Part shown: in pieces, positions 10,587-57,534 of the stretch
Layout: the number at the start of each line of letters is the position of its first letter
Numbering within the stretch: position 1 is the stretch's first letter
Assembly (NCBI RefSeq): GCF_016807805.1
Contig: NZ_CP063362.1
Coordinates: 4,196,501-4,260,500, forward strand
Length of the DNA stretch: 64,000 bases
Direction of reading: 5' to 3'
Source of the DNA: Xanthobacter dioxanivorans
Lineage (GTDB): Bacteria > Pseudomonadota > Alphaproteobacteria > Rhizobiales > Xanthobacteraceae
Translations under genes and position numbers: made by a program
Notes under the pieces: generated by a model
The model's database searches: none
What the model was told of the DNA's origin: nothing
What the model saw: the letters and a program-made list of their open reading frames with translations, nothing else

Positions 10587-10707
10587 GTGCTTGCCTGACC
10601 TGTCCTTCTTGAATTAAATGCAACGTTATGATTTTCCGATCGAGGAATAGTGGGTTGGAAACTATGTAAATGGTGAGTCAAATTGCGCCGCATATCTTTG
10701 AGATAGG

Positions 10708-12036: not shown

Positions 12037-12077
12037 TCCCTCTCTGCGCCCCCTGCTATCCTCAAATATTTGTTTCC

Positions 12078-12091
12078 CGTATATATATACG
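12078..12091. promoter_or_regulatory. 14-bp perfect palindrome between divergent genes
   Basis: CGTATATATATACG is a perfect palindrome in the 85-bp gap between the divergent fusion protein (start 12036) and acetyltransferase (start 12122). It could be an operator or supply overlapping -10 elements; no regulator is known. Confidence 0.35.
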
Positions 12092-12121
12092 TACCGTGGT
12101 TTTTCAATCAGAAATGTGACC

Positions 12122-12808: not shown

Positions 12809-13102
12809 TTTGTCGAAATGCCCGTCTAAACGTCGGATGAATTAGAGTGCACTATGTGGCGCGATTAGAAATTTGCCCGGATGGGTTCTCAACGGCGATG
12901 TCGGCACTTTCGCGCTGTCAAGGCAGGGAGTCTTGTTTCAGGAAGTCGCACACGATTTCGGAGCGAATGTTTCGTGGAAGGCCGGGCATCACGGACCGCT
13001 CGCGGCTTTCCCAGGCTTGAAGAGCATCCGATCCGGCGGGGAGCCGTGATGACGTCAGCGCCCTCTAGTATATAAATTGAATTTCTAGAAATATAATTAA
13101 AT
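12809..13102. other. Intergenic spacer
   Basis: This is 294 bp between the acetyltransferase and kpsM stops, so the flanking genes are convergent. A 64-codon plus-strand frame (12881-13075) has no recognisable content. The right end turns strongly AT-rich. Confidence 0.4.
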
Positions 13103-14571: not shown

Positions 14572-14578
14572 GCCCGCC

Positions 14579-43964: not shown

Positions 43965-44171
43965 TTGGCGACCCTCCCTATACTAAAATCCGGCTCCTGG
44001 AGAACCCAGATCCGTCGGAAGGGGCAGTACGTCAGCGAGACGTTCCTGCGCCGCAAGGATGCCGGGGAATGGGCGCTCGACATGGAGCGCCGCATCGATC
44101 GCCAGGAACCCGCCGTCACGCGCAGGTCGCGTGACGCGAAACGCTTCCGCGCTCACGCGGCGCCGTGGTGA
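43965..44171 (+). pseudogene. Truncated tyrosine-recombinase (integrase) N-terminus
   Basis: The frame from TTG 43965 reads LPILKSGSWRTQIRRKGQYV and continues SETFLRRKDAGEWALDMERR and IDRQEP. This is the AP2-like/SAM-like N-terminal pattern of phage and island integrases. After about 50 residues the similarity stops and the frame ends at 44171, where the convergent OYE gene begins. The catalytic core (R..HxxR..Y) is absent. It lies immediately 5' of dusA in the orientation expected for a dusA-targeting integrase, so I read it as the scar of an integrated element. Confidence 0.6.
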
Positions 44172-44204
44172 AGGTGCGCGTCGTCGGTCTGCGACAGCCG
44201 GGCG

Positions 44205-45317
44205 TCAGCGCGCGCCCGTAAGGGTCTCGCCGAACAGCTGGCGATTGCCGGAGGGCTGGCAGCGCCAGTATTGGGGGGCGGCCTCCACGCTGGCGCCCAG
44301 CTCCGCCGCCGCATGCCAGGGCCAGCGCGGGTCGTAGAGGAGGCCGCGGGCCAGGGCCACCATGTCGGCCTCGCCCGTGGCGACGATGCGCTCCGCCAGG
44401 GCCGGCTGGGTGATGAGCCCCACCGCCACGGTGGGCATGCCCGTCGCCGCCTTCACCGCCGCCGCGAATGGCACCTGGTAGCCGGCACCGAGGGTGATCT
44501 TCTGCAGGGGGGACACTCCCCCCGACGACACGTCGATGAAGTCCGCGCCATGGGCCTTCAGCGCGCGGGCGAAGACGATGGACTGGTCGAGGTCCCAGCC
44601 GCCCTCCACCCAGTCGGTGGCGGAGATGCGCATGCCCACCGGCCGGTCGTCCGGAAACGCGGCGCGCACGGCATCGAACACCTCCAGCGGGAAGCGCATG
44701 CGGTTCTCCAGCGAGCCGCCATAGGCATCGGTGCGCCGGTTGGCGAGGGGCGAGAGGAACTGGTGCAGCAGATAGCCGTGGGCGCCATGGAGCTCGATGG
44801 CGTCGATGCCGAGGCGCGCCGCCCTTCGTGCCGCCGATACGAAGGCCGTGCGCACCCGCGCGAGGCCCTCCGCGTCCAGCGCCTGGGGCGGCGGTTCGCT
44901 CTCCTTGTGGGGCACGGCGGACGGAGCGAAGGGATGCCAGCCGCCCGCCTCCGGCGGGAGCAGGGCGCCGCCCTTCCAGGGCACATTGCTCGACGCCTTG
45001 CGCCCCGCATGGCCGAGCTGCACCGCGACCGGCATGCGCGAATAGGCGCGCACCGCGGTGAGAACGCGGGCGAGGGCTGCTTCGGTGCGGTCGTCCCACA
45101 GGCCGAGGTCGTGCGGAGAGATGCGGCCGGCCGGCTCCACCGCCGTCGCCTCCAGGCACAGCAGGCCCGCGCCGGAAAGGGCCATCTGGCCGAGGTGGAT
45201 CAGGTGCCAGTCGGTGGCGGCGCCCTCGTCCGCCGAATATTGGCACATGGGGGACACGACGATGCGGTTGGCCAGCGTGACGCCCCGCAGGGCCAGGGGG
45301 GAGAACAGGGCGCTCAT
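44205..45317 (-). CDS. Old yellow enzyme family NADH:flavin oxidoreductase (YqjM-like)
   Basis: A 370-residue FMN-dependent ene-reductase. It has NRIVVSPMCQYSA (YqjM-type Cys near the flavin), QLGHAGRKAS, ELHGAHGYLLHQFLSPLANR with the GYLLHQFLSP hallmark, NRMRFPLEV, and MVALARGLLYDPRWP at the C-terminus. It reduces activated C=C bonds with NAD(P)H. It is the last gene of the minus-strand catabolic group. A reductive step on a ring or an unsaturated intermediate would suit the enamidase route proposed here, but that link is an inference. Confidence 0.92.
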   Translation of the reverse strand: MSALFSPLALRGVTLANRIVVSPMCQYSADEGAATDWHLIHLGQMALSGAGLLCLEATAVEPAGRISPHDLGLWDDRTEAALARVLTAVRAYSRMPVAVQLGHAGRKASSNVPWKGGALLPPEAGGWHPFAPSAVPHKESEPPPQALDAEGLARVRTAFVSAARRAARLGIDAIELHGAHGYLLHQFLSPLANRRTDAYGGSLENRMRFPLEVFDAVRAAFPDDRPVGMRISATDWVEGGWDLDQSIVFARALKAHGADFIDVSSGGVSPLQKITLGAGYQVPFAAAVKAATGMPTVAVGLITQPALAERIVATGEADMVALARGLLYDPRWPWHAAAELGASVEAAPQYWRCQPSGNRQLFGETLTGAR

Positions 45318-45395
45318 GGGGCTCGCCAGTTTGGGGAGGGCAGGGGAACGGCATTGTCGGCCAAGACGGTCGGCGCGTGGATGGACCGCTGGGCC

Positions 45396-45791
45396 TCAGG
45401 GTGCATCAAGCACGCCCGGGTCCGCGTAGGAGACATGGGCGCTGACGATGCGCCAGCCCTCCGGCAGGCGCACCCAGGCCTGGCTCTGGCGGCCGATGCG
45501 GGTCTCCCCCTCGTTGCGGAACACCGCATTGGCGCTCGCCATATGGGTGCCGAAGGTGGTGACCACGTAGGACAGGAGCGCGCGCGGCCGCGGCGCGGCG
45601 GGGCGGGCCGCACGGAAGGCGACGATGGCGTCGCGGCCGTAGAGGTGCTCCGCGGCGCCGAAGCGCAGGGTGAGCGGGCTGTCCCAGAACAGGTCCCGCA
45701 GCGCATCGAGATCGTTGGCGACCAGCGCCGCCTCATAGCTGAGGAAGGCGGCCTCGGCCTCGGCATGCACATCCGGCAGATCGATATTCAT
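45396..45791 (-). CDS. AtzH/HpxZ-like protein (SnoaL fold)
   Basis: A 131-residue NTF2/SnoaL-like protein. VHAEAEAAFLSYEAALVAND, LFWDSPLTLRFGAAEHLYGR and RIGRQSQAWVRLPEGWRIV match the AtzH/HpxZ (DUF3225) pattern. Family members act beside amidases in ureide and s-triazine degradation; AtzH decarboxylates 1-carboxybiuret. Here it sits between the OYE gene and a metallo-beta-lactamase-fold hydrolase, so it may handle a small amide or carbamate released from the ring substrate. Confidence 0.8.
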   Translation of the reverse strand: MNIDLPDVHAEAEAAFLSYEAALVANDLDALRDLFWDSPLTLRFGAAEHLYGRDAIVAFRAARPAAPRPRALLSYVVTTFGTHMASANAVFRNEGETRIGRQSQAWVRLPEGWRIVSAHVSYADPGVLDAP

Positions 45792-45870
45792 GGCGGGTCC
45801 TCTTGCCATCGGCCCCGGTACGCGACCGGAGCCGGGTGGGTTCGCGCACGGGCCGCGCAGGCGTCGGGCG

Positions 45871-46686
45871 TCAGGGGGCCGGGCGATCGAGCCACGCGAT
45901 GTGCCGCGCCACGGAGCGGGCCATGGCCTCCTGCGCCCCGGCGGGGATGAGGCCGTTCCAGAAGGCGCCATAAATCGCGTCATAGGCGAACGGCGCGACC
46001 CGCGCCGCCACCTGCGCCACCGCTTGCGCGCCGAGCGGGATGAAGTTCGGATAGGAGCGCATGAAGCCCAGGTGCTTGCGGTCCGCCACCACCTGGAGGA
46101 GGTCGCCGGAGAGCAGCGCGCCGCGCCCGCCTGCGCCCGCCGCCCAGTGGGCCACCGTGCCGCCCTCGAAATGGCCGCCGCTGCGCACCAACGTGAAGCC
46201 GGGCGCGATCTCCAGCGTTTCCCCCTCCCAGAAGCGGATTGAGGGATCCGGGCGCATCACCCATTCCGCATCCGCCTTGTGGAGATAGACGGGGATGCCG
46301 CCGAAGGCGCGGCTCCAGTCCACCAGCGTGGTGTAATAATGCGGGTGGGAGATGGCGATGGCGGTGAGGCCGCCGAGGCCCTTGATGAGATCCACCATGG
46401 CCGGGCTCACCAGGCTGACGCAGTCCCACATCACGGTCCCGGCGGGCGTGGGCACGAGGAGCGCGCGCTGGTTGATGCCGAAGGCGGGGGCGATGCCCAG
46501 CGCCATCAGCTCGCCTTCGTAGCGAAAGATGGGGCTGTGGGTCACCTGGAGGCGCTCCAGCGTGGTCCAGGCCTGGCCGGTGGCGGCCACGAACTGGCGC
46601 TCCTCCTCGCAGATCAGGCACCGGGCCGGAGGCTCCGGCGTCGGGGCATATTGGGTGCCGCAGGTGGTGCAGATGAAGGCTGTCAT
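45871..46686 (-). CDS. Metallo-beta-lactamase-fold hydrolase with N-terminal zinc ribbon
   Basis: A 271-residue protein. The first 35 residues carry two CxxC pairs (ICTTCG and CLICEE), a small zinc ribbon. The rest is an MBL-fold core, but the usual HxHxDH motif appears as ISHPHYYTTLVDW. RSGGHFEGGTVAHW supplies a later His and LLSGDLLQV the bridging Asp. The divergent HPHYY motif suggests an unusual metal site. The role is unknown; a hydrolytic step in the catabolic pathway is the natural guess from its place between the NicC-like and AtzH-like genes. Confidence 0.75.
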   Translation of the reverse strand: MTAFICTTCGTQYAPTPEPPARCLICEEERQFVAATGQAWTTLERLQVTHSPIFRYEGELMALGIAPAFGINQRALLVPTPAGTVMWDCVSLVSPAMVDLIKGLGGLTAIAISHPHYYTTLVDWSRAFGGIPVYLHKADAEWVMRPDPSIRFWEGETLEIAPGFTLVRSGGHFEGGTVAHWAAGAGGRGALLSGDLLQVVADRKHLGFMRSYPNFIPLGAQAVAQVAARVAPFAYDAIYGAFWNGLIPAGAQEAMARSVARHIAWLDRPAP

Positions 46687-46716
46687 GGATGCCTCGCCGT
46701 GTTGCCGACCCGCAGG

Positions 46717-47874
46717 TCAGGCCAGTTCCCTCGGGGCCTCCTGCGGTGCCAGGAGCGGCACGGCGCAGGCGTCGTAGCAGAACAGCCAGTCGGGATCGGT
46801 GGGGCCGCGGAACCAGGTGTTGGCCACGGAGATGCGCTGCACCTTGTTGGTGCGCGGCATGCGGTTTGCGGCGTACCAGGAGAACGCCGTGGCGGGGTCG
46901 TCATGGCCGATGTCGGCGAGGCAGCGGGCGAGCACCGCGCCGTCCTCGATGGCCATGGCGGCGCCGGAGGCCATGTAGGGCCGCAGCGGGTGGCAGGCGT
47001 CGCCCAGCAGCACCACGTTGCCCCGGCTCCAGCAATCCACCGGCTCGCGGTCGAACACCGGCCACATGGTCACCTCCGGCGCCGCCGCCACCACCTGCTG
47101 CAACTCGGGATGGTAGCCGTCGAAGGCGGCGATGAAGGCGTCGCGGTCGCACGGCAGGAAGGACTGGGGCGAGGTCCATTCGCGATGGGGCACGCTGGAG
47201 ACCACGTAGACCTCCTCCCGCGCCTGGGTCATGTAATAGACGAGGATGTGGCTGCCCTCGCCCCACCATTTGGTGCAGGCGCGGATGGGCAGGCCGTTCA
47301 GCAGCGCCGCCGGGAACACCGCGCGGTGGGCGACGTGGCCGCTATAGCGCGGCTTTTCCGTGCCGAGCAGATATTCCCGTACGCGGGAATTCACCCCGTC
47401 CGCGCCGATGACGAGATCCGCCTCGGCCTTCGCTCCGTTCTCGAAGGCGAGGTGCACGATGCCGTGCCGCTCCTCCATCGCGCGCAGCTTGTGGCCGAAG
47501 GCGACCGTGCCGTGATCGAGGGCGGATTCCAGCACCTGATGCAGGTCGCCCCGGTGCACGTTGATGTAGGCGGCGCCGAAATGCGCCTCGTTCTGCGGGT
47601 GGAACGGCAGTTCGAACAACACCTCGCCCGTGTCCCACTTGCGGCTCACGAAGGCGTCGGGATGCAGGCCGATGTCTGTGAGCGTCGTTTCGATGCCCAG
47701 GCGGCGCATCACCTTCATCACATTGGGGCTGAGGTGGATGCCGGCGCCAATGCGGGAGAAGGCGGCCGCCTGTTCGAACACCTGCACCTTGAAGCCGGCA
47801 CGCTGGAGCAGGCCGGCCGTGGTCATGCCACCGAGCCCCGCGCCGATGACCGCAATCCGGATGTCGCGCCGCAT
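46717..47874 (-). CDS. NicC-like FAD-dependent aromatic hydroxylase
   Basis: A 385-residue group A flavoprotein monooxygenase. It has IAVIGAGLGG (FAD), DLVIGADGVNSRVRE (DG motif) and VVLLGDACHPLRPYMASGAA (GD motif). Detailed stretches such as IGAGIHLSPNVMKVMRRLG, AAYINVHRGDLHQVLE and CTKWWGEGSHILVYYMT recall 6-hydroxynicotinate 3-monooxygenase (NicC) more than salicylate hydroxylase. NicC converts 6-hydroxynicotinate to 2,5-dihydroxypyridine with loss of CO2. The substrate is likely a hydroxylated N-heterocyclic or aromatic acid. It starts 1 bp after the stop of the amidohydrolase, so the two are translated together. Confidence 0.83.
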   Translation of the reverse strand: MRRDIRIAVIGAGLGGMTTAGLLQRAGFKVQVFEQAAAFSRIGAGIHLSPNVMKVMRRLGIETTLTDIGLHPDAFVSRKWDTGEVLFELPFHPQNEAHFGAAYINVHRGDLHQVLESALDHGTVAFGHKLRAMEERHGIVHLAFENGAKAEADLVIGADGVNSRVREYLLGTEKPRYSGHVAHRAVFPAALLNGLPIRACTKWWGEGSHILVYYMTQAREEVYVVSSVPHREWTSPQSFLPCDRDAFIAAFDGYHPELQQVVAAAPEVTMWPVFDREPVDCWSRGNVVLLGDACHPLRPYMASGAAMAIEDGAVLARCLADIGHDDPATAFSWYAANRMPRTNKVQRISVANTWFRGPTDPDWLFCYDACAVPLLAPQEAPRELA

Positions 47875-47875
47875 G

Positions 47876-48919
47876 TCAGCCCTCTCCCTCTGCAAGCGGC
47901 GCATCGGCCGCGGAAAGGAGGTCCCGGATGGTGCCACCGAGCACCGCATCCTCCTGCGCCGTGCCGAGCCCCAGCCGGCGCACCCGTTCCGGGCCGGTGG
48001 GATCCAGCATTTCGAACGGATAATCGCTGCCATAGACCACCCGCTCCGCTCCCACCTGCGTCACCAGGAAGGCGAGGGCGGCATCGTCATGGGTGAGCGT
48101 GTCGTAGAAGAAGCGGTCCAGCAGGCGGGAAGGTGCCGTGCCGAGGCTGCGGCTGCAGGCCGGATGGGCCGCGAAGCCCCGGTCCATGCGGCCGATTTGG
48201 TAGGGCAGGAAGCCCCCCGCATGGGCAAGGCAGATCTTGAGCCATGGCAGATCATCGAGGATGCCGCTGAACATGAGGCGTGCGGCGGCGATGGTGGTGT
48301 CCACCGGGAATGAGATGAGATTGTTGAGGAAATAGTCGCCGTTGCGGCCCTCGCCCACGGGCTTGAAGGGAGGATGCAGCAGCACCAGCATGTCGAGATC
48401 GCACAGGCGCTTCCACAGGGGCCGGAAGTCCGGATGGTCGAGATCGCGCCCATTGATGTTGGTGCCGATCTCCACCGACCGGATGCCGAGATTCCGCGCC
48501 ATGTGGTCCAGTTCCGCCAATGCGAGCGAAACATCCTGCAGGGGCAGCGTGCCCATGGCCGCGAAACGGTCTCCGGACTTGGCCGCATCGGCCGCGAGAG
48601 TCTCGTTCTGAAGCCGCGACCACCGCGCGCCCTGCGCCGGGGGGATCTGGTCGCCGGCCATGTCGGTCCAGGTGGACACCACCTGCAGGCCGATGCCCGC
48701 GGCGTCCATGCCGAACACGCGGACGCTAAGGTCGCACAATTCGTGGAAGAAGGGGCGCAGCACGGTGCCGTCGGCGAAGGCGAGGCGGGCGCGGCCATCC
48801 GCGTCACGCATTATGCTCACGCCATAGTCCGTGCCGTGGCGCTCCGCTTCGTGGATGAGGTCGGGTGCCACGTAATGGGCGTGCATGTCGACCACGGAAA
48901 GGTGACTGGGGCGAAGCAT
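47876..48919 (-). CDS. ACMSD-like amidohydrolase/decarboxylase (amidohydrolase 2)
   Basis: A 347-residue TIM-barrel metal enzyme. Metal-site residues are seen as VVDMHAHYV (HxH), VLLHPPF, ICLAHAGGFLPYQIGRMDRG and VYGSDYPFEM. This is the ACMSD/gamma-resorcylate decarboxylase/isomerase subgroup, which acts on carboxylated ring or ring-opened products. ATG 48919 lies behind GGGACACGAG. It heads the minus-strand operon and is 86 bp downstream of the palindromic operator at 49005. Confidence 0.85.
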   Translation of the reverse strand: MLRPSHLSVVDMHAHYVAPDLIHEAERHGTDYGVSIMRDADGRARLAFADGTVLRPFFHELCDLSVRVFGMDAAGIGLQVVSTWTDMAGDQIPPAQGARWSRLQNETLAADAAKSGDRFAAMGTLPLQDVSLALAELDHMARNLGIRSVEIGTNINGRDLDHPDFRPLWKRLCDLDMLVLLHPPFKPVGEGRNGDYFLNNLISFPVDTTIAAARLMFSGILDDLPWLKICLAHAGGFLPYQIGRMDRGFAAHPACSRSLGTAPSRLLDRFFYDTLTHDDAALAFLVTQVGAERVVYGSDYPFEMLDPTGPERVRRLGLGTAQEDAVLGGTIRDLLSAADAPLAEGEG

Positions 48920-49004
48920 CTCGTGTCCCGATCCAACATGGGGGCGGCCGGGCACAGGTCAGGGCAAGGGAATGCGCTCGGTCGCAACTCGTTCAATATC
49001 ATAT

Positions 49005-49022
49005 AATTCGATATCGAACTAA
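49005..49022. promoter_or_regulatory. MarR-type operator upstream of the NicC-like operon
   Basis: AATTCGATATCGAACTAA contains the perfect palindrome TTCGATATCGAA (49007-49018). The same 18-bp sequence with two changes recurs at 50011-50028 in front of the other operon. It lies 86 bp from the ACMSD-like start. Confidence 0.6.
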
Positions 49023-49068
49023 TTGACCATAGGATGCGCTTTTCATCCTGTCAATCGCCCGGAAATGG

Positions 49069-49740
49069 TCACGCTGAAGGTTCGGCCCCGATGTCTTCCA
49101 TGAGGGCCGCGGAGAGGCGCTCCAGCAGGCCCAGCAGCATTTCGGTGTCCGCCAGGCCAAGGCGGGCGACGAGGCGGTGTTGCGCCTCCACGAACTTCGG
49201 GATGATCTCATCTATCAGCTTCACACCCTTCTGGGTGAGCTGGATCTTGAGGCTGCGCCGGTCGTTCGGTTCGGGCAGGCGGGCGATGAGGTTGAGGCTT
49301 TCCAGCCGGTCGAGCCGGTTGGTCATTCCGGCCCCGCTCAGCAGCAGGGATTCTGCCAGTTGCTTGGGGGTCAGGGAATAAGGCAGGCCCGCCCGGCGCA
49401 AGGCGGAAAGCACATCGAACGTGCCCCGCACGAGGCCGTGCTGCTCCAGCACGTTGTTCATGTAGGGCGTGGTCAGAAGGTGTGCCTGCGCCAGGGCGCC
49501 GAACAGCCGCATCGGCTCGGGGTCGAGGTCCGGCCTCTCGCGATGCCACTGCTCGACGATGGCGTTGATGGGCACCTGAAGCTGCCCCGCCTTCGCGGTC
49601 CCTTTCTTGGCGCCCCCCTCTGCCGCACCCTTGCGCCTGCCGGTTCGCGCCGGAGCCGGTGCAGGGATTTCTCCGGCATCAGGTTCCGTCTCGGCGGGCG
49701 TGGAGGTCCTGTCCTTGCTGCGGGTCCCAATCCTGACCAT
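49069..49740 (-). CDS. MarR-family transcriptional regulator
   Basis: A 223-residue regulator. A 50-residue Lys/Ala/Pro-rich N-terminal tail precedes a winged-helix core. FDVLSALRRAGLPYSLTPKQ, SGAGMTNRLDRLESLNLIAR and DRRSLKIQLTQKGVKLIDEI are the recognition helix and wing of MarR proteins. MarR proteins are usually ligand-responsive repressors of adjacent catabolic genes. Two copies of one palindrome flank this gene, in front of the minus-strand and plus-strand operons, so control of both is likely. Confidence 0.88.
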   Translation of the reverse strand: MVRIGTRSKDRTSTPAETEPDAGEIPAPAPARTGRRKGAAEGGAKKGTAKAGQLQVPINAIVEQWHRERPDLDPEPMRLFGALAQAHLLTTPYMNNVLEQHGLVRGTFDVLSALRRAGLPYSLTPKQLAESLLLSGAGMTNRLDRLESLNLIARLPEPNDRRSLKIQLTQKGVKLIDEIIPKFVEAQHRLVARLGLADTEMLLGLLERLSAALMEDIGAEPSA

Positions 49741-50074
49741 GCCGCGTCGCCTCCGCTAATCATTCGATGTAAAATGGTTTTGGACGTTGCGCGAGCGCAT
49801 TCCCGAAACGTTTCCCGAATAACCTGTATTCCGTGTCATGGCAACGCATCCTGGCGACTTCGCCGCTTCCCGAGAGCGGATTGCCGCATAGGCTTGCGGT
49901 TGCACAAATTTTGGCGCCCCACCTGCCGGCAGGCGCATAAAATTTGGGATACCCCTTGAATTGACACGCCTTTCATACCGCAATAACGTCTACATAGTTC
50001 GACGAATAATAATTTGATATCGAACGAATGTCCTGCGCTTCAACTGCGATCTCTTGGTGATCTTGGAGACCCGG
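49741..50074. promoter_or_regulatory. Divergent promoter region between marR and the enolase-superfamily gene
   Basis: This 334-bp region is AT-richer than its surroundings and has no gene. It contains the palindrome GAAACGTTTC at 49805-49814, close to marR, and the operator copy at 50011-50028, close to the plus-strand operon. Confidence 0.6.
50011..50028. promoter_or_regulatory. MarR-type operator upstream of the transporter operon
   Basis: AATTTGATATCGAACGAA matches the copy at 49005-49022 at 16 of 18 positions. It lies 46 bp before the ATG of the enolase-superfamily gene, where a bound repressor would block transcription. Confidence 0.6.
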
Positions 50075-51177
50075 ATGACCATAGCCGCCCTGACCGCCTA
50101 TCCGCTCGCGACGCCTCAGCCGGCCTGGTCGGGCCGGTCCGGCTCCGTGAAAGGCCTCGTGGTGGAGGTTGTCACCAAGGATGGGCGCAGCGGCTTTGGG
50201 GAAGCCTTCTCGCCGGCCGCGCCACAGGCCGCCGCCAGCATTGTCGAGGCCACCCTGTCTCCGCTCCTGCTGGGCGCCGATGAAAACGCCATCGGCGGCT
50301 TATGGGAGCAGATGCGCCGTGCGCTTGTGACGCCGGTGGGCGGAGCGGGAGCCGAGGCAATTTCTGCCATCGACATCGCCTTGTGGGATCTGCTCGGCCA
50401 GCGCCTCGACGCGCCCATCCATACGCTGCTGGCCGGTCATGGGCGCAGCCGGGTACCGGCTTATGCGTCCTTTATCGGCTGGATCCCCGACGCGCAGGCC
50501 GTCGCCGTGGCGGAGCGGGCCGTCGCCCTCGGCTTCCGCCAGATCAAGGTCAAGATCTCGCCGCCCCTCGACGCGGCGCTCGCCCGCGTGGCCCTTATCC
50601 GCGACGCGGTGGGTGAAGGCGTCGCCCTGGTTGCCGATCCCAACGGCGCCTTTGATTTTCCTGCGGCGGTCACGCTCGCCCGCCGCCTTGCCGAGCTTGG
50701 GTATCTGTGGCTGGAAGAGCCACTGGATCCCGCCGACGTGGCAGGGCTCGCGCGGCTGAATGCCCATGGCATCCTGCCGCTGGCGGCGGGCGAGAGTGAA
50801 TACGGCCCGCGTGGCGCCATCGCCCTGGTTTCCGCCGGCGCCGTGGATCTGCTCCAGCCGGATTGCGGGCGCATCGGAGGCATTACCGGCTTCATGCGGG
50901 CGGCGATGGCCGCCGCTAGCCTCGGTGTGCCATTCGCGCCCCATCATGCGGGGGCCCGGTCAAGGCTGCCGCCGCGCTGCATCTGGCGGCGGCGCTGCCG
51001 GAATTCCGCATCATGGAATGCAGCCTGCTGCGCACACCGCTCCACGATGACCTGACCGAGCAGCCCGTCGCCCATCCCTGCCTGCTGGATACGGAAGGCA
51101 CCCTTCCGGTGCCCGGCGGGCCCGGCCTCGGCATTACCGTCAATCGCGACGCGCTGCGTCGCATGCGCCTCAATTGA
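50075..51177 (+). pseudogene. Mandelate racemase/muconate-lactonizing-type enolase-superfamily enzyme, frameshifted
   Basis: Start ATG 50075 behind GGAG. The barrel has the KxK base pair (RQIKVKIS), metal ligands in VADPNGAFD, WLEEPLD and AAGESEYG, then PDCGRIGGI and the catalytic-His region FAPHHAG. After that point the frame runs into Arg-rich sequence. Adding one G to the run at 50950-50954 restores GGPVKAAAALHLAAALPEFR, then ECSLLRTPLHDD, to a stop at 51177, a normal C-terminal end. The repaired length, about 367 residues, is standard. All catalytic positions are intact, so I suspect a sequence error rather than gene decay. It probably isomerises or lactonises a carboxylate in the pathway. 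Confidence 0.8.
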
Positions 51178-51237
51178 GTAAGCAACAGCCCTGGTCCACG
51201 TCCCGGACAGCCCCGAATTCGATCGACGGAGAGCGCG

Positions 51238-52314
51238 ATGACCTTTGATATCAAGCGCAGAGACCTGCTGGCAGGTGGCGCACGCCTCGCCCTTGGCGCC
51301 GCCGCCTTCGGCGCCCTCGGCGCGGCGTCGGCCGGGCGCTCGGCCCGCGCCGAAGACGTGACGCTACGCGTCACCCATTTCGGCGGCCCCTATCAGGTGC
51401 TCGGCGACATCATCGCCAAGCCGTTCGAGCAGGCGACCGGCATCAAGGTCATCTACGACGTCGAGATCTCGCCCAGCGCCAGCGCCAAGATCCAGACCCA
51501 GAAGGCGGACCCGCCCTTCGACCTGGTGATGATCTCGCGCGCCTGGGGCCTGCGCGGCATGAAGGGCGGACTGTTCGCGCCGGTGAAGCCCACTGATTTC
51601 GCCGAGGCGCCGCACCTTCTGCCCCACATCATCCCGGAGGGCGGCTGGGGCGTGGCGACCATGCTCGACACCTTCGACCTGATGGTGGACACCAAGCAGA
51701 TCCCGACCCCCGTCACGTCCTGGCTCGACCTGTGGCGCGACGACATGAAGGGCAAGATCATGCTGCCGAGCGCCGTCAATGGCTCCTCGGCCTTCGGCTT
51801 CCTCGCCTGCCTGGTGAAGGCCATCGCCGGCGACATGAAATCGGAAGCCGGCCTCAACGAGGCCTTCGCGCGTCTCAAGGCGCTGAAGCCCGCCGTCCGC
51901 TCCTTCTATGCCGACGGCAGCCAGCCCAACATGCTGATCGAGCGCGGCGACATCGGCATCGCCCCGCAGTTTGCCATCCGCATCGCCAACACCACGCGCA
52001 AGGCGCCGCAGGTGGTGAAGTGCTCGCCCAAGGAGGGCGTGCTCGCGGTGCCTTACGATCTGTGCATCCCGGTCAATTCCCCGCGCATCGCGCAGGCCAA
52101 GACCTACATGAACTTCACTCTCACCAAGCCGTCGCAGGCGGCCATGGTCACCAACCTGCTCGCCACCCCGGTGCGCGCCGACGTGACCATTCCCCCGGAC
52201 GTCGCTCCGCTGGTGAATGCGGATGCTTCGCTGGTCTGGTTCCAGGACGAGGAGTTCGCCGCGCTCCGGCAAAAGGAGTGGCTCGATCGCTACACCCGCG
52301 AGGTCCAGAGTTGA
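51238..52314 (+). CDS. ABC transporter substrate-binding protein (Tat signal)
   Basis: A 358-residue periplasmic binding protein of the spermidine/putrescine-like (PotD/type 2) class. The N-terminus has KRRDLLAGG, a twin-arginine motif, then a hydrophobic stretch and ARAED cleavage region. LRVTHFGGPYQVLGDIIAKP begins the mature fold. Binding proteins of this class take many small anions and amines; linkage to the catabolic genes suggests the ring substrate. It is the first transporter gene after the enolase-superfamily enzyme. Confidence 0.88.
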   Translation: MTFDIKRRDLLAGGARLALGAAAFGALGAASAGRSARAEDVTLRVTHFGGPYQVLGDIIAKPFEQATGIKVIYDVEISPSASAKIQTQKADPPFDLVMISRAWGLRGMKGGLFAPVKPTDFAEAPHLLPHIIPEGGWGVATMLDTFDLMVDTKQIPTPVTSWLDLWRDDMKGKIMLPSAVNGSSAFGFLACLVKAIAGDMKSEAGLNEAFARLKALKPAVRSFYADGSQPNMLIERGDIGIAPQFAIRIANTTRKAPQVVKCSPKEGVLAVPYDLCIPVNSPRIAQAKTYMNFTLTKPSQAAMVTNLLATPVRADVTIPPDVAPLVNADASLVWFQDEEFAALRQKEWLDRYTREVQS

Positions 52315-52319
52315 ACGCC

Positions 52320-53447
52320 ATGGTCACCATGCCGGCGGACACGACAGGCAGCGGAGCCGGCATGGAGCCACCCGAGCTGGTGCTCGACAATCTGTGCAAG
52401 TCGTTCGACGGCCATGTGGCGGTGGACCGCTGCAGCCTCGCGCTGCGGCGCGGGGAGATCGTGGCGCTGCTCGGCGCCTCGGGCTGCGGCAAGTCCACCT
52501 TGCTCAACATGATCGCCGGTTTCGAGACACCGGACTACGGCACCATCAGCCTGCGCGGCAAGGCCATCACCGGCATTGCGCCGCACAAGCGCAACGTGGC
52601 GATGGTGTTCCAGCACTACGCCATGTTTCCGCACATGACGGTGACGGACAACATCGCCTACGGCCTCCACGCCCGCCGCCTCGACAAAGCGGAGATCCGC
52701 GCGCGGGTCGCCGAGATGGTGGCGCTGCTGCACCTCGGCGGCCTGGAGACGCGTTTTCCAGCCCAGCTCTCGGGCGGCCAGCGCCAGCGCGTGGCCGTCG
52801 CCCGGGCGCTGGCCGTGCGCCCGGACATGCTGCTGCTGGACGAGGCCTTCAGTGCCCTTGACCGCAACTTGCGCGAAGACATGCAGCTGGAGCTGTCGCT
52901 GCTGCTGCGCCGCCTCAGGGTCACCACCGTCCTCGTCACCCATGACCAGCGCGAGGCTTTCGCGCTGGCCGACCGCATCGCCATCATGCAGGGCGGCCGC
53001 ATTGCCCAGATCGGCACGCCGGAGGAGGTCTACCGCGCGCCCCAATCCAGCTCCGTGCTGCGCTTCCTCGGCACCACCAACCGCCTCGCCGGCGTCCTCG
53101 TGGCCGAGGGGGCCGGGCATCGCATGCGGGTGCCGCCGGCCCTCGATTTCATCGCGCCCGAGGAGACCGTCGCCGGGTCCGGGGCGGGTCCGGTGAGCCT
53201 TGACCTGCGGGCCGAGGACATCGCCCTGTCGCCGACGCCGACGCCTGTGCATCCCACGGCCCCCGGCATCGTCACCCTGCGCACCTTCCTCGGCGCGCAG
53301 GAACGGGTCATCGTCTTTCTCGGCGATGCCCAGATCGTGGTGGACCGCCCGGCTCAGGCGGGTGTCCAGCAACTGGCCGTGCGGGTGGGCGACGCCGTCT
53401 ATCTGGACTTCGATCCGGCGGCCTGCCGGCTCGGCGCGGCCGGGTGA
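52320..53447 (+). CDS. ABC transporter ATP-binding protein (PotA-like)
   Basis: A 375-residue importer ATPase. Walker A is GASGCGKST, the Q-loop is VFQHYAMFPHMTV, the signature is LSGGQRQRVAVARAL and Walker B is MLLLDEAFSALD. A C-terminal TOBE-type domain starts around residue 275 (VSLDLRAEDIALSP). It drives uptake with the two permeases that follow. ATG 52320 is chosen; TTG 52311, overlapping the previous stop as TTGA, is an alternative. Confidence 0.9.
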   Translation: MVTMPADTTGSGAGMEPPELVLDNLCKSFDGHVAVDRCSLALRRGEIVALLGASGCGKSTLLNMIAGFETPDYGTISLRGKAITGIAPHKRNVAMVFQHYAMFPHMTVTDNIAYGLHARRLDKAEIRARVAEMVALLHLGGLETRFPAQLSGGQRQRVAVARALAVRPDMLLLDEAFSALDRNLREDMQLELSLLLRRLRVTTVLVTHDQREAFALADRIAIMQGGRIAQIGTPEEVYRAPQSSSVLRFLGTTNRLAGVLVAEGAGHRMRVPPALDFIAPEETVAGSGAGPVSLDLRAEDIALSPTPTPVHPTAPGIVTLRTFLGAQERVIVFLGDAQIVVDRPAQAGVQQLAVRVGDAVYLDFDPAACRLGAAG

Positions 53448-54313
53448 GCGCCATGGCAACGCGCAACAGCCTCACACCCTGGCTCTGGCTCGCGCCCACC
53501 GGCGCGCTGCTCATCCCGTTCTTCGTCATCCCCATCGCCATTACCGCGCGCAACAGCGTCTATATCGACGACCCCATGGGGATCCTGGTGCCGGGCTTCA
53601 CCTTCGCCAACTACGCCAAGGTGCTGAGCGACAGCTATTACCTCACCGTTTTCACCAACACCCTTCTGGCGGCGGGCGGCGTCGCGCTGCTGGCTTTGGC
53701 CATCTCCTATCCCTTCGCCTGGCTGCTGGCGCAGTCGTCCGGCTCGGGCCGGGCGTTCCTGCTGTGGGCGGTGTACCTGCCCATCTATGTCAGCGTCATC
53801 ATGCGGGTGTTCGGCTGGATGGTGATCGTCTCCGACAGCGGCATGCTCAACCAGGCGCTCATCCGCCTGGGCCTGGTGAGCCAGCCGGTGCACATCATGA
53901 ACGAGGTGAGCGGCATGGGCCTCGGCCTCATCCACCGCTACCTGCCGCTGATGATCCTGCCGCTGGTCACCTCGCTCCGGAAGGTGGACGAGACCATGCT
54001 GCGCGCCTCGGCCAATCTCGGCGGCGGGCGCTGGTTCACCTGGTTCCGCGTGGTCATGCCCATTTCGCTCCCGGGAGCGGTGGCGGGCATGCAGCTGGTG
54101 TTCGCCGGCGTGCTCTCGGACTATGTGATCCCGGCCTTGATGGGCTCCACCCGGTTCCAGATGCTGGCTCCGGCCATCTTCTACGAATCCAGCACCAATG
54201 CCAGCTGGGCGCTCGCCGGGGCCATGGCCACGCTGGTGCTGGCGGCGGTGGCTCTGTTCCTCCTCACGGCCAACCTCATCGTCCGGCGCGTCGCGCCGTG
54301 GGCGAGCATCTGA
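53444..54313 (+). CDS. ABC transporter permease (PotB-like)
   Basis: A 289-residue inner-membrane permease with six predicted helices. The cytoplasmic loop around EVSGMGLGLIHRYLPLMILP and LRASANLGGGRWFTWFRVVM is the EAA motif region that contacts the ATPase. The start GTG 53444 overlaps the ATPase stop as GTGA. Confidence 0.9.
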   Translation: MSAMATRNSLTPWLWLAPTGALLIPFFVIPIAITARNSVYIDDPMGILVPGFTFANYAKVLSDSYYLTVFTNTLLAAGGVALLALAISYPFAWLLAQSSGSGRAFLLWAVYLPIYVSVIMRVFGWMVIVSDSGMLNQALIRLGLVSQPVHIMNEVSGMGLGLIHRYLPLMILPLVTSLRKVDETMLRASANLGGGRWFTWFRVVMPISLPGAVAGMQLVFAGVLSDYVIPALMGSTRFQMLAPAIFYESSTNASWALAGAMATLVLAAVALFLLTANLIVRRVAPWASI

Positions 54314-54323
54314 GGGGGAACCG

Positions 54324-55112
54324 ATGGCGACCTCGCAGAGCTATTCCACCCCTGGCCTTGCCAGCCGCTTCTTCGCGGCGCTGGTGGTGCTGTTCCTCAT
54401 GGGACCCATCATCATCGCCGGCATCGTCGCCTTCTCCAGCGGCGACCGGCTGGAGTTCCCCATTCCGGGCTTCAGCCTGCGCTGGTTCGCGGTGGCGCTC
54501 CAGACGCCGCAATATATCGAGGGGCTGACGGTTTCCGCCATCATCGGCCTCGGCAATGCCGCGCTCGCCACCATCGCCGGCACCGGGGCGGCCATCGCGC
54601 TGCACCGCTACCGGTTCCGTGGGCGTGCGGCGGTGCAGGCGGTGGTGATGCTGCCCATCGCCATGCCGGCCATCGTGCTTGGCCTCGGCCTTTTGTTCAC
54701 GCTGGCGGTCTACGATATGCGGCCCGGCATCCTCGCCGCGACGCTCGGTCACGCGGTGCTCGGCGTGCCCTACGTGGTGGCCATGGTGAGCGCGGCCCTG
54801 GCCAACCACGACGGCTCGCTGGAGCGCGCCTCCCTGAATCTCGGGGTGGGTCCGGTGGGCACTTTCTTCCGCGTGACCCTGCCCATGATCCGCGGCGGGG
54901 TGATCGCGGGCGGGGTCTCGGCCTTCCTGATCTCTTTCGACAATTTCTCGCTCTCCCTCTTCATCACTCGCGGCGACACCCTGCCGCTGCGGCTGATGCA
55001 GCAGCTCCTGGCCTATGCCGACCCCTCGGTCGCGGCCATCTCCACCCTCCTCGTCTTCGCCTCGCTGGCCGGCCTCATCTTCCTGCTGCCGCTGGCCTTG
55101 CGGGGCCGCTGA
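54324..55112 (+). CDS. ABC transporter permease (PotC-like)
   Basis: A 262-residue permease, second half of the membrane channel. ERASLNLGVGPVGTFFRVTL is its EAA loop. ATG 54324 lies behind GAGGGGG, 10 bp after the first permease. With the preceding three genes it makes a complete four-component importer. Confidence 0.9.
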   Translation: MATSQSYSTPGLASRFFAALVVLFLMGPIIIAGIVAFSSGDRLEFPIPGFSLRWFAVALQTPQYIEGLTVSAIIGLGNAALATIAGTGAAIALHRYRFRGRAAVQAVVMLPIAMPAIVLGLGLLFTLAVYDMRPGILAATLGHAVLGVPYVVAMVSAALANHDGSLERASLNLGVGPVGTFFRVTLPMIRGGVIAGGVSAFLISFDNFSLSLFITRGDTLPLRLMQQLLAYADPSVAAISTLLVFASLAGLIFLLPLALRGR

Positions 55113-55139
55113 CCCTTCCTTCCGCCTCGGGACCCCTCG

Positions 55140-55718
55140 ATGATTGAGCTTCTGCGGACCTTCACCCAGATGGAGGAGATCCATCACGAATTCGGCCCGC
55201 CTCCGGCCGTGCCACGGCGGCGCGCGGCGGTGGGCATCGTGTTGCGCAATCCCTTCGCCGGCCGCTACGAGCCCGACATCGTGCCCATGATGGAGGCGCT
55301 GAAGCCCCTGGGCCTGGAGATGGCACGGCGCACCAGCGCGGCGCTGGGGGTGCCGCTGTCGGCCATCGATGGCTATGGCAAGGGCTCGCTGGTGGGCACT
55401 GATGGCGAATTGGAGCACGGCGCCCTCTGGCACGTCCCGGGCGGCTATGCCATGCGCGCCCTGCTCGGCGATGCCAGGGCCATCGTGCCCTCGGCCAAGA
55501 AGGTGGCGGGGCCGGGCGCGACGCTGGACGTGCCCATCACCCACACCAATGCCAGCTACGTGCGCAGCCATTTCGACGCCTTCGAGGTGCGGGTGCCCGG
55601 CGCGCCACAGCCGGACGAGATCGTCTTCGTGCTGGCCATGACCAGCGGCCCCCGCGTGCACGACCGCCTGGGCGGCCTGCGCGCGGACCAGATTTCCGCA
55701 ATGGACGGACTGAGGTGA
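55140..55718 (+). CDS. DUF1185/PF06684 amino acid synthesis family protein (first copy)
   Basis: A 192-residue protein of the PF06684 family. RRRAAVGIVLRNPFAGRYEP, the YGKGSLVGTDGELEHGALW block and VPSAKKVAGPGATLDVPITH are its landmark segments. A crystal structure of a Bordetella member showed a variant of the chorismate-mutase fold and led to a proposed role in amino-acid metabolism; no reaction is established. It overlaps the second copy by 4 bp. The pair probably forms a heteromer or acts in successive steps. Confidence 0.85.
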   Translation: MIELLRTFTQMEEIHHEFGPPPAVPRRRAAVGIVLRNPFAGRYEPDIVPMMEALKPLGLEMARRTSAALGVPLSAIDGYGKGSLVGTDGELEHGALWHVPGGYAMRALLGDARAIVPSAKKVAGPGATLDVPITHTNASYVRSHFDAFEVRVPGAPQPDEIVFVLAMTSGPRVHDRLGGLRADQISAMDGLR

Positions 55719-56308
55719 GGGTGATGAAGGCAGAAATCCGCAAGGTCGTCGTGCAGATTGACGAGATCCATTCGCAGATGGGCCGCCCGGTGGATCCGCC
55801 CACCCGCCGCGCCGTGGCCATGGCGGTGATCGCCAACCCGTTCGCCGGCACCTATGCCGAGGACCTCTCGGACCTCTCCGATATCGGCCTGGAGCTGGGC
55901 GACCTGCTCGGCCGGCGCTGCGTGGAGGCCCTCGGCATCGCGCCGGAGGCGGCGCACAGCTATGGCAAGGGCGTGATCGTGGGCGACCAGGGCGAGCTGG
56001 AGCATGCCGCCGCCATCCTGCATCCCAAGCTGGGCACCAGCCTGCGCGCCACGGTGGGCGGCGGGGCGGCCCTCATCCCCTCCGCCAAGAAGATGGGCGG
56101 CCCCGGCACCGCCATCGACGTACCCCTCGGCCACAAGGATGCGGCGCGGGTGCGCAGCCATTTCGATGCGGTGGAGGCCCGCATCGGCGATGCGCCACGC
56201 CGCGGCGAGATCGTGGTGGCCATCGCCGTCACCGACAGCGGCCGGCCCGCGCCCCGCGTCGGCGGCCTGACGCTCGACCAGGTGGTGGGCACCGACGGGC
56301 TCGTCTGA
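55715..56308 (+). CDS. DUF1185/PF06684 amino acid synthesis family protein (second copy)
   Basis: A 197-residue paralogue of the previous gene product. Shared landmarks are RRAVAMAVIANPFAGTYAED, the YGKGVIVGDQGELEHAAAI block, IPSAKKMGGPGTAIDVPLGH and a C-terminal RVGGL. Divergence between the two is large, so this is not a recent duplication. The start is GTG 55715 in a GTGA overlap; ATG 55724 is an alternative. Confidence 0.85.
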   Translation: MRVMKAEIRKVVVQIDEIHSQMGRPVDPPTRRAVAMAVIANPFAGTYAEDLSDLSDIGLELGDLLGRRCVEALGIAPEAAHSYGKGVIVGDQGELEHAAAILHPKLGTSLRATVGGGAALIPSAKKMGGPGTAIDVPLGHKDAARVRSHFDAVEARIGDAPRRGEIVVAIAVTDSGRPAPRVGGLTLDQVVGTDGLV

Positions 56309-56334
56309 GCCCCTCAGCGAACAGGGAGCCAACC

Positions 56335-57534
56335 ATGGCCCATGACCAGGCCGCACCTTCGGCCGGCAAGCTTGTCGTCCGCAACATCGGGCTTGCCCTT
56401 TCGGGCGACCTCGCCAACCCCATCCTCGCGGCGGATACGCTGGTGTGCGAGGGCGGACGGATCACCGCCGTCGGCGCCTTCGCTGATTGCGACACCGAAG
56501 GCGCCGATACGGTGATCGACGCCCACGGCGCGGCGGTGGCGCCGGGCCTCATCGACAGCCATTCGCACCCGGTGTTCGGCGACTGGACGCCACGGCAGAA
56601 CCAGATCGGCTGGATCGATTCCATGGTCCATGGCGGCGTGACCACGCTGGTCTCCGTGGGCGAGGTGCACCTGCCCGGGCGCCCGCGGGACGTGATCGGC
56701 GCCAAGGCGCTGGCCATCACCGCCCAACGCGCCTTCAGCACCTTCCATCCTTCCGGCATGAAGGTCCATGCCGGCGCGGTGGTGGTGGAGCGCGGCATGA
56801 GCGAGGCCGACTTCGCCGAGCTCGCCGCCATCGGCGTGGACCGCATCGCCGAGATCGGCCTCGGCACGGTGAAGGAGGCGGACGAGGCGCGCCAGGCGGT
56901 GGCATGGGCGCGCAAATACGGCATGCGCACCATCATCCACACCGGCGGGCCGTCCATCCCCGGCTCGGGCATGATCGACAAGAACGTGGTGCTCGCCTCC
57001 GATGCGGACGTGATCGGCCACATCAACGGCGGCCACACCGCCTTGCCGCCGGATGAGATCCGCGAGCTGATCGAGCGTTCCCCCCGGGCCATCGAGATCG
57101 TCCACAACGGCAACGAGAAGATGGCGGTGTTCGCCGCCCGCACCGCCGCCGAGCTGGGCTGCCTCGACCGGGTGATCCTCGGCACCGATTCCCCCGCCGG
57201 CTCCGGCGTGCAGCCGCTCGGCATCCTCCGGGTGATGAGCCTCCTTTGCGGGCTCGCCGACATCCCGCCGGAAGCGGCCATCTGCTTTGCCACCGGCAAC
57301 ACCGCCCGCATCCAGCGCCTGGACGGCGGCCGCCTCGAAGCCGGCCGCGCGGCGGACCTCGTCTTCCTGGCGCGGGCGCAGTGCAGCTCCGGCAAGGACC
57401 TGCTCTCCAGCATCTCCGCCGGCGACCTGCCGGGGGTGGGCATGGTGGTGATCGATGGCATCGTGCGCTGCGGCAGGAGCCGCAACACACCTCCGGCGGA
57501 GGTCGTGCCCGAGATCGTCAAGGCGCGCCCCTGA
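56335..57534 (+). CDS. Enamidase-like amidohydrolase
   Basis: A 399-residue member of the amidohydrolase superfamily. Metal-site features: LIDSHSHPVFGDW (HxH, about residue 70), MKVHAGAVVVERG with a candidate metal-bridging Lys, TIIHTGGPSIPGS, IGHINGGHTAL and GTDSPAGSG (Asp). GVTTLVSVGEVHLPGRPRD, KALAITAQRAFSTF and the C-terminal RSRNTPPA recall the enamidase of Eubacterium barkeri, which hydrolyses 1,4,5,6-tetrahydro-6-oxonicotinate to 2-formylglutarate plus ammonia. Nicotinate breakdown in Azorhizobium is reported to use the same intermediates. It is the last gene of the plus-strand operon. Confidence 0.85.
   Translation: MAHDQAAPSAGKLVVRNIGLALSGDLANPILAADTLVCEGGRITAVGAFADCDTEGADTVIDAHGAAVAPGLIDSHSHPVFGDWTPRQNQIGWIDSMVHGGVTTLVSVGEVHLPGRPRDVIGAKALAITAQRAFSTFHPSGMKVHAGAVVVERGMSEADFAELAAIGVDRIAEIGLGTVKEADEARQAVAWARKYGMRTIIHTGGPSIPGSGMIDKNVVLASDADVIGHINGGHTALPPDEIRELIERSPRAIEIVHNGNEKMAVFAARTAAELGCLDRVILGTDSPAGSGVQPLGILRVMSLLCGLADIPPEAAICFATGNTARIQRLDGGRLEAGRAADLVFLARAQCSSGKDLLSSISAGDLPGVGMVVIDGIVRCGRSRNTPPAEVVPEIVKARP

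What the first reader, a model, noticed from the sequence alone, without database searches (positions are those of the whole stretch)
43965..57534. Two-operon N-heterocyclic acid degradation module joining a NicC-like hydroxylase with an enamidase
Seen: a NicC-like FAD hydroxylase, ACMSD-like amidohydrolase, MBL-fold hydrolase, AtzH-like protein and OYE on one strand; an enolase-superfamily enzyme, four-gene ABC importer, two DUF1185 proteins and an enamidase homologue on the other; marR between. Known: aerobic nicotinate routes use NicC then NicX/D/F/E; anaerobic Eubacterium uses enamidase; Azorhizobium nicotinate breakdown is reported to pass through tetrahydro-6-oxonicotinate and 2-formylglutarate. 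Neither standard set is complete here. I infer a hybrid or new pathway for nicotinate or a related pyridine/lactam acid in which the OYE could reduce the ring before enamidase opens it.
Basis: partly seen in the sequence, partly recalled or inferred. Interest (0 to 1): 0.75.

Follow-up and report, generated by a model that had tools for sequence, protein, structure and literature searches.

The report
Two-operon pyridine-acid breakdown locus
A bacterial chromosome carries a matched pair of operons, read from one control region, that look built to import and break down a nitrogen-ring acid without the signature enzymes of the two best-known nicotinic-acid routes beside them; the chemistry is inferred, not tested.

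Summary
A NicC-like hydroxylase (nearest solved structure NicC, 402 bits) and an enamidase homologue (nearest enamidase, 367 bits) sit in two divergent operons with a MarR gene between. The enamidase + DUF1185 pair usually sits with 6-hydroxynicotinate reductase (Hnr; 57 of 80 loci). Such a set lies elsewhere in this genome, but the window locus lacks Hnr, G1004 gave no Hnr match, and its enamidase is a separate clade. No close NicX was found in this genome. OYE and AtzH are not shared with G1004, so the proposed OYE step is not supported. Best reading: a MarR-controlled, Hnr- and NicX-independent catabolic locus for a hydroxypyridine/lactam carboxylate, ending in hydrolysis of a cyclic enamide. 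Substrate unknown. New variant of a known kind.

The parts
44205..45317 (-). OYE-family (YqjM/NamA-like) flavin oxidoreductase; no match in the G1004 locus
   Evidence: PF00724 E 5e-67; NamA model 337 bits, below its cut-off; not in L178
45396..45791 (-). AtzH/HpxZ-like small protein; no match in the G1004 locus
   Evidence: PF11533 E 2e-48, NCBIfam HpxZ 164 bits over cut-off 135; not in L178
45871..46686 (-). MBL-fold-like protein with N-terminal rubredoxin-like CxxC/CxxC ribbon
   Evidence: 74% to L178 copy; H114, H116, H172, D195 and four Cys invariant in 11 aligned sequences; Lactamase_B weakly in 5 of 11
46717..47874 (-). NicC-like FAD hydroxylase, distinct subfamily
   Evidence: 5eow NicC E 2e-119; 79% to L178; pocket residues
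47876..48919 (-). ACMSD-like amidohydrolase-2 protein (probable decarboxylase)
   Evidence: human ACMSD E 3e-46, both substrate Arg positions kept (roles recalled); 65% to L178
49005..49020 (.). putative MarR operator palindrome upstream of the ACMSD-NicC-MBL genes
   Evidence: TTCGATATCGAA, 0 mismatches at 49007
49069..49740 (-). MarR-family regulator
   Evidence: MarR_2 E 9e-12; 73% to L178 MarR, 46-49% to MarRs near NicC homologues in L147, L148, L180
50011..50026 (.). second copy of the putative operator, before the enolase gene
   Evidence: TTTGATATCGAA, 1 mismatch at 50013
50054..51055 (+). enolase-superfamily enzyme, mandelate-racemase-type; frame broken at the G5 run 50950-50954
   Evidence: MR_MLE_N/C; 72% to the L178 copy
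51238..52314 (+). ABC importer, substrate-binding protein
   Evidence: SBP_bac_8 E 1e-22; 73% to L178
52320..53447 (+). ABC importer, ATPase with TOBE_2
   Evidence: ABC_tran E 1e-36; 73% to L178
53444..54313 (+). ABC importer, permease 1
   Evidence: weak BPD_transp_1, below its cut-off; 76% to L178
54324..55112 (+). ABC importer, permease 2
   Evidence: BPD_transp_1 E 2e-12; 80% to L178
55140..55718 (+). DUF1185 (PF06684) protein a; L178 has a single DUF1185 gene, nearer to protein b
   Evidence: E 8e-65
55715..56308 (+). DUF1185 (PF06684) protein b
   Evidence: E 1e-68; 2qtp E 9e-81; 77% to L178
56335..57534 (+). enamidase homologue, clade found without Hnr
   Evidence: 2vun E 8e-109; 75% to L178; own clade 100/100 in the tree

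Best explanation
One MarR-controlled catabolic locus for an N-heterocyclic (hydroxypyridine or lactam) carboxylic acid. Shown by sequence: two divergent operons kept together in two genomes, the same palindrome before both, no Hnr gene with them. Inferred: the regulator represses both operons until the substrate or an early product binds. The ABC importer brings the acid in. The ACMSD-like enzyme decarboxylates a (di)carboxylated ring compound, and the NicC-like enzyme swaps a ring carboxylate for a hydroxyl. The mandelate-racemase-type enzyme isomerises or dehydrates at a carbon next to a carboxylate. The enamidase-clade enzyme hydrolyses the resulting cyclic enamide and releases ammonia. DUF1185 acts beside it, perhaps on the ring-opened formyl acid (Lys85, Glu94/96, His97 and Arg177/181 are invariant in 32 aligned members). 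The step that creates the enamide is unknown.
For: Same gene order in G1004 at 65-80% identity. Palindrome at <=1 mismatch at two places in 64 kb, both promoters; also at both promoters in L178 and twice between SBP and NicC in L147; background 4 in 1,780,382 bases. NicC pocket: H47, C202, H211 and Y215 kept in 121 of 121 clade members. Enamidase similarity 367 bits with the metal-ligand motifs aligned (ligand roles recalled). DUF1185 beside the enamidase in three context types: Hnr loci, A. vitis pAt, Shinella p3_Teo12. No Hnr match in G1004 (the same query rings in G000).
Against: No substrate, growth, binding or assay data. Only one complete second locus was read, and its kinship to the window's genome is not told; both may belong to one family. 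The NicC clade has over 100 listed proteins while the enamidase clade, cut by identity, has about 12, so the NicC-ACMSD part may often occur without the enamidase. NicC removes the carboxylate that the known enamidase substrate carries, so a straight line NicC then enamidase does not fit known chemistry. L148, a NicC-homologue locus with a related MarR, has a glyoxalase/dioxygenase-family protein nearby, which would fit an ordinary aromatic route there. The window's enolase frame is broken.
Confidence: 0.6

Rival explanations
1. Auxiliary operon of the ordinary reductive nicotinate route: Hnr encoded at 1.94 Mb makes tetrahydro-6-oxonicotinate (THON), and the window enamidase and DUF1185 pair are a second copy for the same steps, while NicC diverts some 6-hydroxynicotinate.
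For: The genome holds an Hnr set with its own enamidase and DUF1185 pair; the window enamidase keeps the metal-ligand motifs.
Against: G1004 has the locus but no Hnr match; the window enamidase is in a separate clade, with 9 diagnostic residues, 5 of them within three residues of motif residues.
Confidence: 0.18
2. A pyridine-dicarboxylate route (for example quinolinate or pyridine-2,5-dicarboxylate): the ACMSD-like enzyme acts like PicC and removes one carboxylate, NicC-like then converts the 6-hydroxynicotinate-type product to a dihydroxypyridine, which is opened by a route without NicX. This is one specific case of the best explanation.
For: ACMSD-like keeps both Arg that bind the ACMS diacid (residue roles recalled); PicC, a pyridine-acid decarboxylase, is annotated as an amidohydrolase-family protein (PMC10142695 passages); NicC pocket mostly kept.
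Against: No ring hydroxylase for the first step and no dioxygenase were recognised in the locus; PicC was not compared by sequence here; ACMSD Trp191 position not kept.
Confidence: 0.12
3. The substrate is not a pyridine: NicC-like acts as a 4-hydroxybenzoate-type decarboxylative hydroxylase, and the enamidase opens some other lactam.
For: Tropone 2-monooxygenase, a decarboxylative vanillate hydroxylase and a chain named 4-hydroxybenzoate decarboxylase also match (185, 185 and 173 bits); NCBIfam has 3-hydroxybenzoate 6-monooxygenase first at 240 bits, below its cut-off of 459; pocket changes M213L and G229S against NicC; a glyoxalase/dioxygenase-family protein lies near the NicC homologue in L148.
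Against: NicC is far closer than these (402 bits); five of eight published NicC pocket residues kept; the partner enamidase is nearest a THON-opening enzyme.
Confidence: 0.08
4. Two unrelated neighbouring operons.
For: In the 80 enamidase loci NicC (35%) appears once, OYE once, and ACMSD and MBL not at all at the threshold used.
Against: Conserved order in G1004 and a shared palindrome.
Confidence: 0.02

Closest known systems
Hnr/enamidase nicotinate cluster (Eubacterium barkeri, Azorhizobium caulinodans, Bradyrhizobiaceae SG-6C)
   Same: Enamidase homologue, DUF1185 pair, an ABC importer; PMC3511419 (passages) describes a conserved cluster with the first three steps, an ABC transporter and two proteins of unknown function, which I take to be the DUF1185 pair
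   Different: No Hnr, UPF0280 protein, ferredoxin/FNR or molybdenum hydroxylase at the locus; other importer class; NicC/ACMSD/MBL/enolase added; separate enamidase clade
nic cluster (NicC, NicX, NicD, NicF, NicE)
   Same: NicC-like hydroxylase, a MarR regulator in two of the three clusters fetched (L187, L188) and, in Mesorhizobium AR07, a distantly similar importer (permeases 25 and 32%, ATPase 47%)
   Different: No NicX/D/F/E at the locus; MarR does not look BpsR-like in the alignment; NicC pocket differs at 213 and 229, and at 302
pic cluster (picolinate; PicC, PicR)
   Same: Amidohydrolase-type decarboxylase and MarR repressor by published description (passages and a reference title)
   Different: No PicA/B and no 2,5-dihydroxypyridine genes recognised at the locus; no sequence comparison with pic proteins made
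Fungal hxn pathway (HxnX, HxnT)
   Same: NicC-like enzyme plus an OYE-family reductase (PMC9304392 passages)
   Different: OYE is not shared with the second bacterial locus; no HxnV/W/M/N equivalents were sought

Membership tests
NicC (6-hydroxynicotinate 3-monooxygenase) | Closest solved relative is NicC | tested here: met
   402 bits to 5eow, next kind 185 bits
NicC (6-hydroxynicotinate 3-monooxygenase) | Published pocket residues H47, C202, H211, M213, Y215, V227, T228, G229 (list from PMC9304392 passages) | tested here: not met
   Window keeps 5 of 8; M213 is Leu in 121 of 121 and G229 Ser in 120 of 121 clade members; T228 is Ser in the window, Ser 36 and Thr 85 in the clade; the NicC of L187, L188 and L189 (3 of 3) keep all eight
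NicC (6-hydroxynicotinate 3-monooxygenase) | Neighbouring NicX/D/F/E | tested here: not met
   None recognised at the locus. With a protein taken as NicX from its place in the L187 nic cluster (annotated hypothetical), best match in the genome 29%, 49 bits, against 286-288 bits in two control plasmids
NicC (6-hydroxynicotinate 3-monooxygenase) | Activity on 6-hydroxynicotinate | not testable with these tools
   needs enzyme
Enamidase | Full-length similarity and conserved metal-ligand motifs | tested here: met
   381 residues aligned, 367 bits; HxH, E, HTGG, HINGG and D motifs aligned (ligand roles recalled)
Enamidase | Genomic association with Hnr (context, not strictly defining) | tested here: not met
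   Hnr in 57 of 80 enamidase loci, not at this locus, no match in G1004
Enamidase | Opens THON to 2-formylglutarate and ammonia | not testable with these tools
   needs enzyme
ACMSD | Metal ligands and two substrate Arg (human R47, R243) | tested here: met
   Aligned; roles recalled; W191 position not kept
Hnr-type reductive nicotinate cluster | Hnr, UPF0280 protein, ferredoxin/FNR present | tested here: not met
   Not among the genes of the window locus; present at L134 in the same genome
BpsR (6-hydroxynicotinate-sensing MarR) | Tyr15, His23, Arg26, His32 (PMC6837509 passages) | tested here: inconclusive
   Window MarR aligns poorly with a BpsR-annotated protein in this helix; its best solved relative is another MarR (8ylf)

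The most novel reading that the evidence does not exclude
A further bacterial way to open a hydroxypyridine ring: a NicC-type product or a related pyridone acid is opened hydrolytically as a cyclic enamide by an enamidase clade, needing neither NicX oxygen cleavage nor Hnr reduction, with DUF1185 as a dedicated enzyme of the ring-opened formyl acid.
Probability: 0.2. Interest if true: 0.75.

Novelty: new variant of a known kind. Interest (0 to 1): 0.52.

Why it matters
It would add a new branch to the few known ways in which bacteria break the pyridine ring, and it ties the uncharacterised DUF1185 family to the enamidase step in several contexts. The shared operator and defined gene set make the function directly testable in ordinary soil-type bacteria.

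Tried and rejected
The idea that OYE and AtzH are core parts was dropped because the G1004 stretch has no match to them. The idea that the window enamidase is a recent duplicate of the 1.95-Mb copy was dropped on the tree. NicC-homologue loci L147-L152 and L180-L181 and MBL loci L135-L146 were scanned for the same gene set; none held it. ACMSD as a hook found nothing at E <= 1e-80 in 397 genomes of the order of G811 (that set held no known positive), and a viral-contig scan with NicC found nothing. The A. vitis monooxygenase beside an enamidase is not NicC-like (32% over 80 residues). A similarity of DUF1185 to cyanuric-acid-hydrolase-type folds was considered but not tested. The structure job for the MBL protein never finished (polls), so there is no fold evidence. 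Composition gave no sign of foreign origin: GC 0.688 for the cluster, 0.695 for the rest; no tRNA gene was found in the window.
Full report
Gene content. ORF listing, Pfam, NCBIfam and PDB sequence searches confirm the genes at 44205-57534. The NicC-like protein matches P. putida NicC (5eow) at 402 bits, E 2e-119; the best chain named salicylate monooxygenase has 129 bits. The amidohydrolase matches enamidase 2vun at 367 bits, E 8e-109, and imidazolonepropionase at 23 bits. NCBIfam gave no better name: its best models are 3-hydroxybenzoate 6-monooxygenase (240 bits, cut-off 459) and imidazolonepropionase (48 bits, cut-off 298), both far below cut-off. The ACMSD-like protein matches human ACMSD at E 3e-46 and keeps the two Arg positions that bind substrate (roles recalled). 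The second DUF1185 protein matches 2qtp at E 9e-81.

The usual setting of the enamidase. A scan of genome contigs found 259 relatives, of which the best 80 were kept as loci. Among these 80, tblastn with representative queries found DUF1185b in 60, a ~540-residue protein in 57, a UPF0280/ApbE-like protein in 56, DUF1185a in 52, LivK and LivM in 51 each, FNR in 45, and NicC, OYE, the enolase and each window-type permease in one. Many of these contigs are short, so absences are soft. The ~540-residue protein is annotated 6-hydroxynicotinate reductase in CP099606. This is the known reductive nicotinate cluster; PMC3511419 (passages only) describes it with two proteins of unknown function, which I take to be the DUF1185 pair. 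The window's genome holds such a set at C1:1.9375-1.9574 Mb (L134): Liv importer, DUF1185 pair, UPF0280, Hnr (68%), molybdenum-hydroxylase pieces, ferredoxin, FNR and an enamidase 66% like the window one; the TetR and FAD5-subunit queries found nothing there.

The window locus is different and is a unit. In a protein search the 120 listed rows are the window's own NicC-like protein and 119 others at 69-93% identity (only 8000 candidates scored). In sampled genomes this subfamily is rare: at E <= 1e-160, 1 of 295 genomes in the family of Bradyrhizobium dw_411 (the same one of 18 in its genus); at E <= 1e-120, 2 of 385 in the class, one of them G000 itself and the other a 55% relative. Among 61 relatives, G000 included, all have some FAD-hydroxylase match but none other than G000 exceeds 55% identity. 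Of 40 genomes with enamidase loci that could be searched (42 of the 80 loci were asked, 2 not held), 2 had a match at E <= 1e-100, at 46-48%. The one close match, G1004, carries the two operons in the same order and orientation: enamidase 75%, DUF1185b 77%, permeases 80 and 76%, ATPase 73%, SBP 73%, enolase 72%, and on the other strand MarR 73%, ACMSD 65%, NicC 79%, MBL 74%. Its kinship to the window's genome is not told; they may share a family. OYE, AtzH and a second DUF1185 gene are missing there. Downstream of its enamidase lie an amidohydrolase, a second amidohydrolase-2, a 3-hydroxyisobutyrate-dehydrogenase-like protein, a RidA-type protein and a GntR regulator. G1004 gave no Hnr match with the query that rings in G000. 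Comparing contig lengths printed, the NicC and ACMSD lists share 7 values (one is the window's own), and two of these are also shared by the ten enamidase rows nearest the window; a value of 1899 shared by enamidase and ACMSD was set aside as too short for both genes. Equal length is only a hint of one contig.

Shared operator. A palindrome seen in the MarR-ACMSD gap of the window and of L178 was then sought elsewhere. TTCGATATCGAA at one mismatch or fewer occurs at two places in the 64-kb window: 49007, before the ACMSD operon, and 50013, just before the enolase. A 13-base version at two mismatches gives 4 strand matches (the same two places) against 0.38 expected; 1 of 100 shuffles reached 4. 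L178 has it at 13066 and 14138, again before both operons, and three places with 2 mismatches elsewhere. L147 has it twice between SBP and NicC (0 and 1 mismatch); L148 has it once, about 270 bases from its MarR, with 2-mismatch copies at the NicC-SBP gap and just inside the predicted SBP gene; L180 has two 2-mismatch copies in its NicC-SBP gap; L187 and L188 have none at one mismatch, and L142 has one that is not at its MarR gene. In the other loci of 8 kb or more (these seven dropped before the count) it occurs 4 times in 1,780,382 bases at one mismatch or fewer. So the palindrome goes with some NicC-homologue loci that have a related MarR, and both window operons carry it. That the MarR protein binds it is inferred.

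Is it NicC, is it enamidase? Of the eight NicC pocket residues named in PMC9304392 (passages), the window keeps five; M213 is Leu in 121 of 121 clade members and G229 is Ser in 120 of 121. The NicC proteins of three plasmid nic clusters keep all eight: L187 and L189, whose neighbours are annotated by family (maleate isomerase or Asp/Glu racemase, alpha/beta hydrolase, amidase types), and L188, which has a NicX-like neighbour (residues). H302, a residue I recall but that is not in that list, is Tyr in 121 of 121 and His in those three. The fungal HxnX works on 6-hydroxynicotinate while keeping only H211 and Y215 of that set, so the changes do not exclude that substrate. The enamidase tree has 82 rows (6 of 88 dropped as short or interrupted); window and L178 form their own clade at 100/100, while L134 sits with Bradyrhizobium, Afipia and Xanthobacteraceae rows. 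The program flags the window as a long branch, and the place of the clade among the others is open. Its no-Hnr labels include truncated contigs and plasmid loci not tested for Hnr. Nine positions separate the window clade (12 sequences, ten of them chosen by an identity gap, not by the tree) from 54 Hnr-linked enamidases; 5 of the 9 lie within three residues of motif residues. At one of the nine (149) the E. barkeri enzyme has the clade's Val.

DUF1185. The family was described as a hexameric chorismate-mutase-like fold of unknown function (PMC2954203, section 12 read). Here it sits beside the enamidase in Hnr loci, in A. vitis pAt with one copy and no Hnr annotated in the 19 kb shown, in Shinella p3_Teo12 and in the window. 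In 32 aligned members Lys85, Glu94, Glu96, His97, Arg111, Asp135, Arg147, Glu165, Arg177 and Arg181 are invariant. A role on the ring-opened formyl acid is my inference.

No NicX found. A protein taken as NicX from its place in the Paraburkholderia nic cluster (annotated hypothetical) finds relatives in the two control plasmids at 44%, 286-288 bits, but in the window's genome only 29%, 49 bits; G1004 has a 36% match about 3 Mb from the locus. NicD, NicE and NicF were not searched genome-wide.

Mechanism and limits. The parts fit a MarR-controlled importer and catabolic set for a pyridone or lactam acid in which a cyclic enamide is opened by hydrolysis. Which compound it is, and which step makes the enamide, is not shown. 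The window's enolase frame is broken at a G5 run, so the window copy may be impaired or misassembled. Print search: 'enamidase' gives 8 papers, 'DUF1185' 3, '6-hydroxynicotinate reductase' 2, and oxonicotinate/oxonicotinic/formylglutarate 17, of which 15 were listed. I saw their listings and, for a few, passages; no listing pointed to this two-operon locus, but the library misses most subscription papers.

Noticed in passing
L134 (same genome, C1:1.9375-1.9574 Mb): Hnr-type nicotinate set with Liv importer, DUF1185 pair, molybdenum hydroxylase with cytochrome c domains, ferredoxin, FNR and its own enamidase.
   Followed up: partly
window 50950-50954: Enolase-superfamily gene loses its frame at a run of five G; the G1004 copy is open there. 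Assembly error or real loss cannot be told.
   Followed up: partly
L147:8740-11407 and L148:8363-10445: NicC homologues (54 and 51%) followed by a protein that in L147 matches polysaccharide deacetylase (L148 has its homologue); in L147 two copies of the operator precede NicC. Another possible non-NicX route.
   Followed up: partly
L148:7394-8314: Glyoxalase/dioxygenase-family protein next to the NicC-homologue genes, which could be a ring-cleaving enzyme of an ordinary aromatic route there.
   Followed up: no
L182 (Agrobacterium vitis pAt) 8399-14849: DUF1185 + enamidase (47%) with a different FAD monooxygenase, a DUF4286 protein and an ABC importer, no Hnr annotated nearby.
   Followed up: partly
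L077: Two separate enamidase matches at 66% and 63% on one contig (two genes or one broken gene).
   Followed up: no
L178:1706-6089: Beside the G1004 enamidase: two more amidohydrolases, a 3-hydroxyisobutyrate-dehydrogenase-like protein, RidA and GntR; the dehydrogenase type recalls 2-(hydroxymethyl)glutarate dehydrogenase (recalled).
   Followed up: partly
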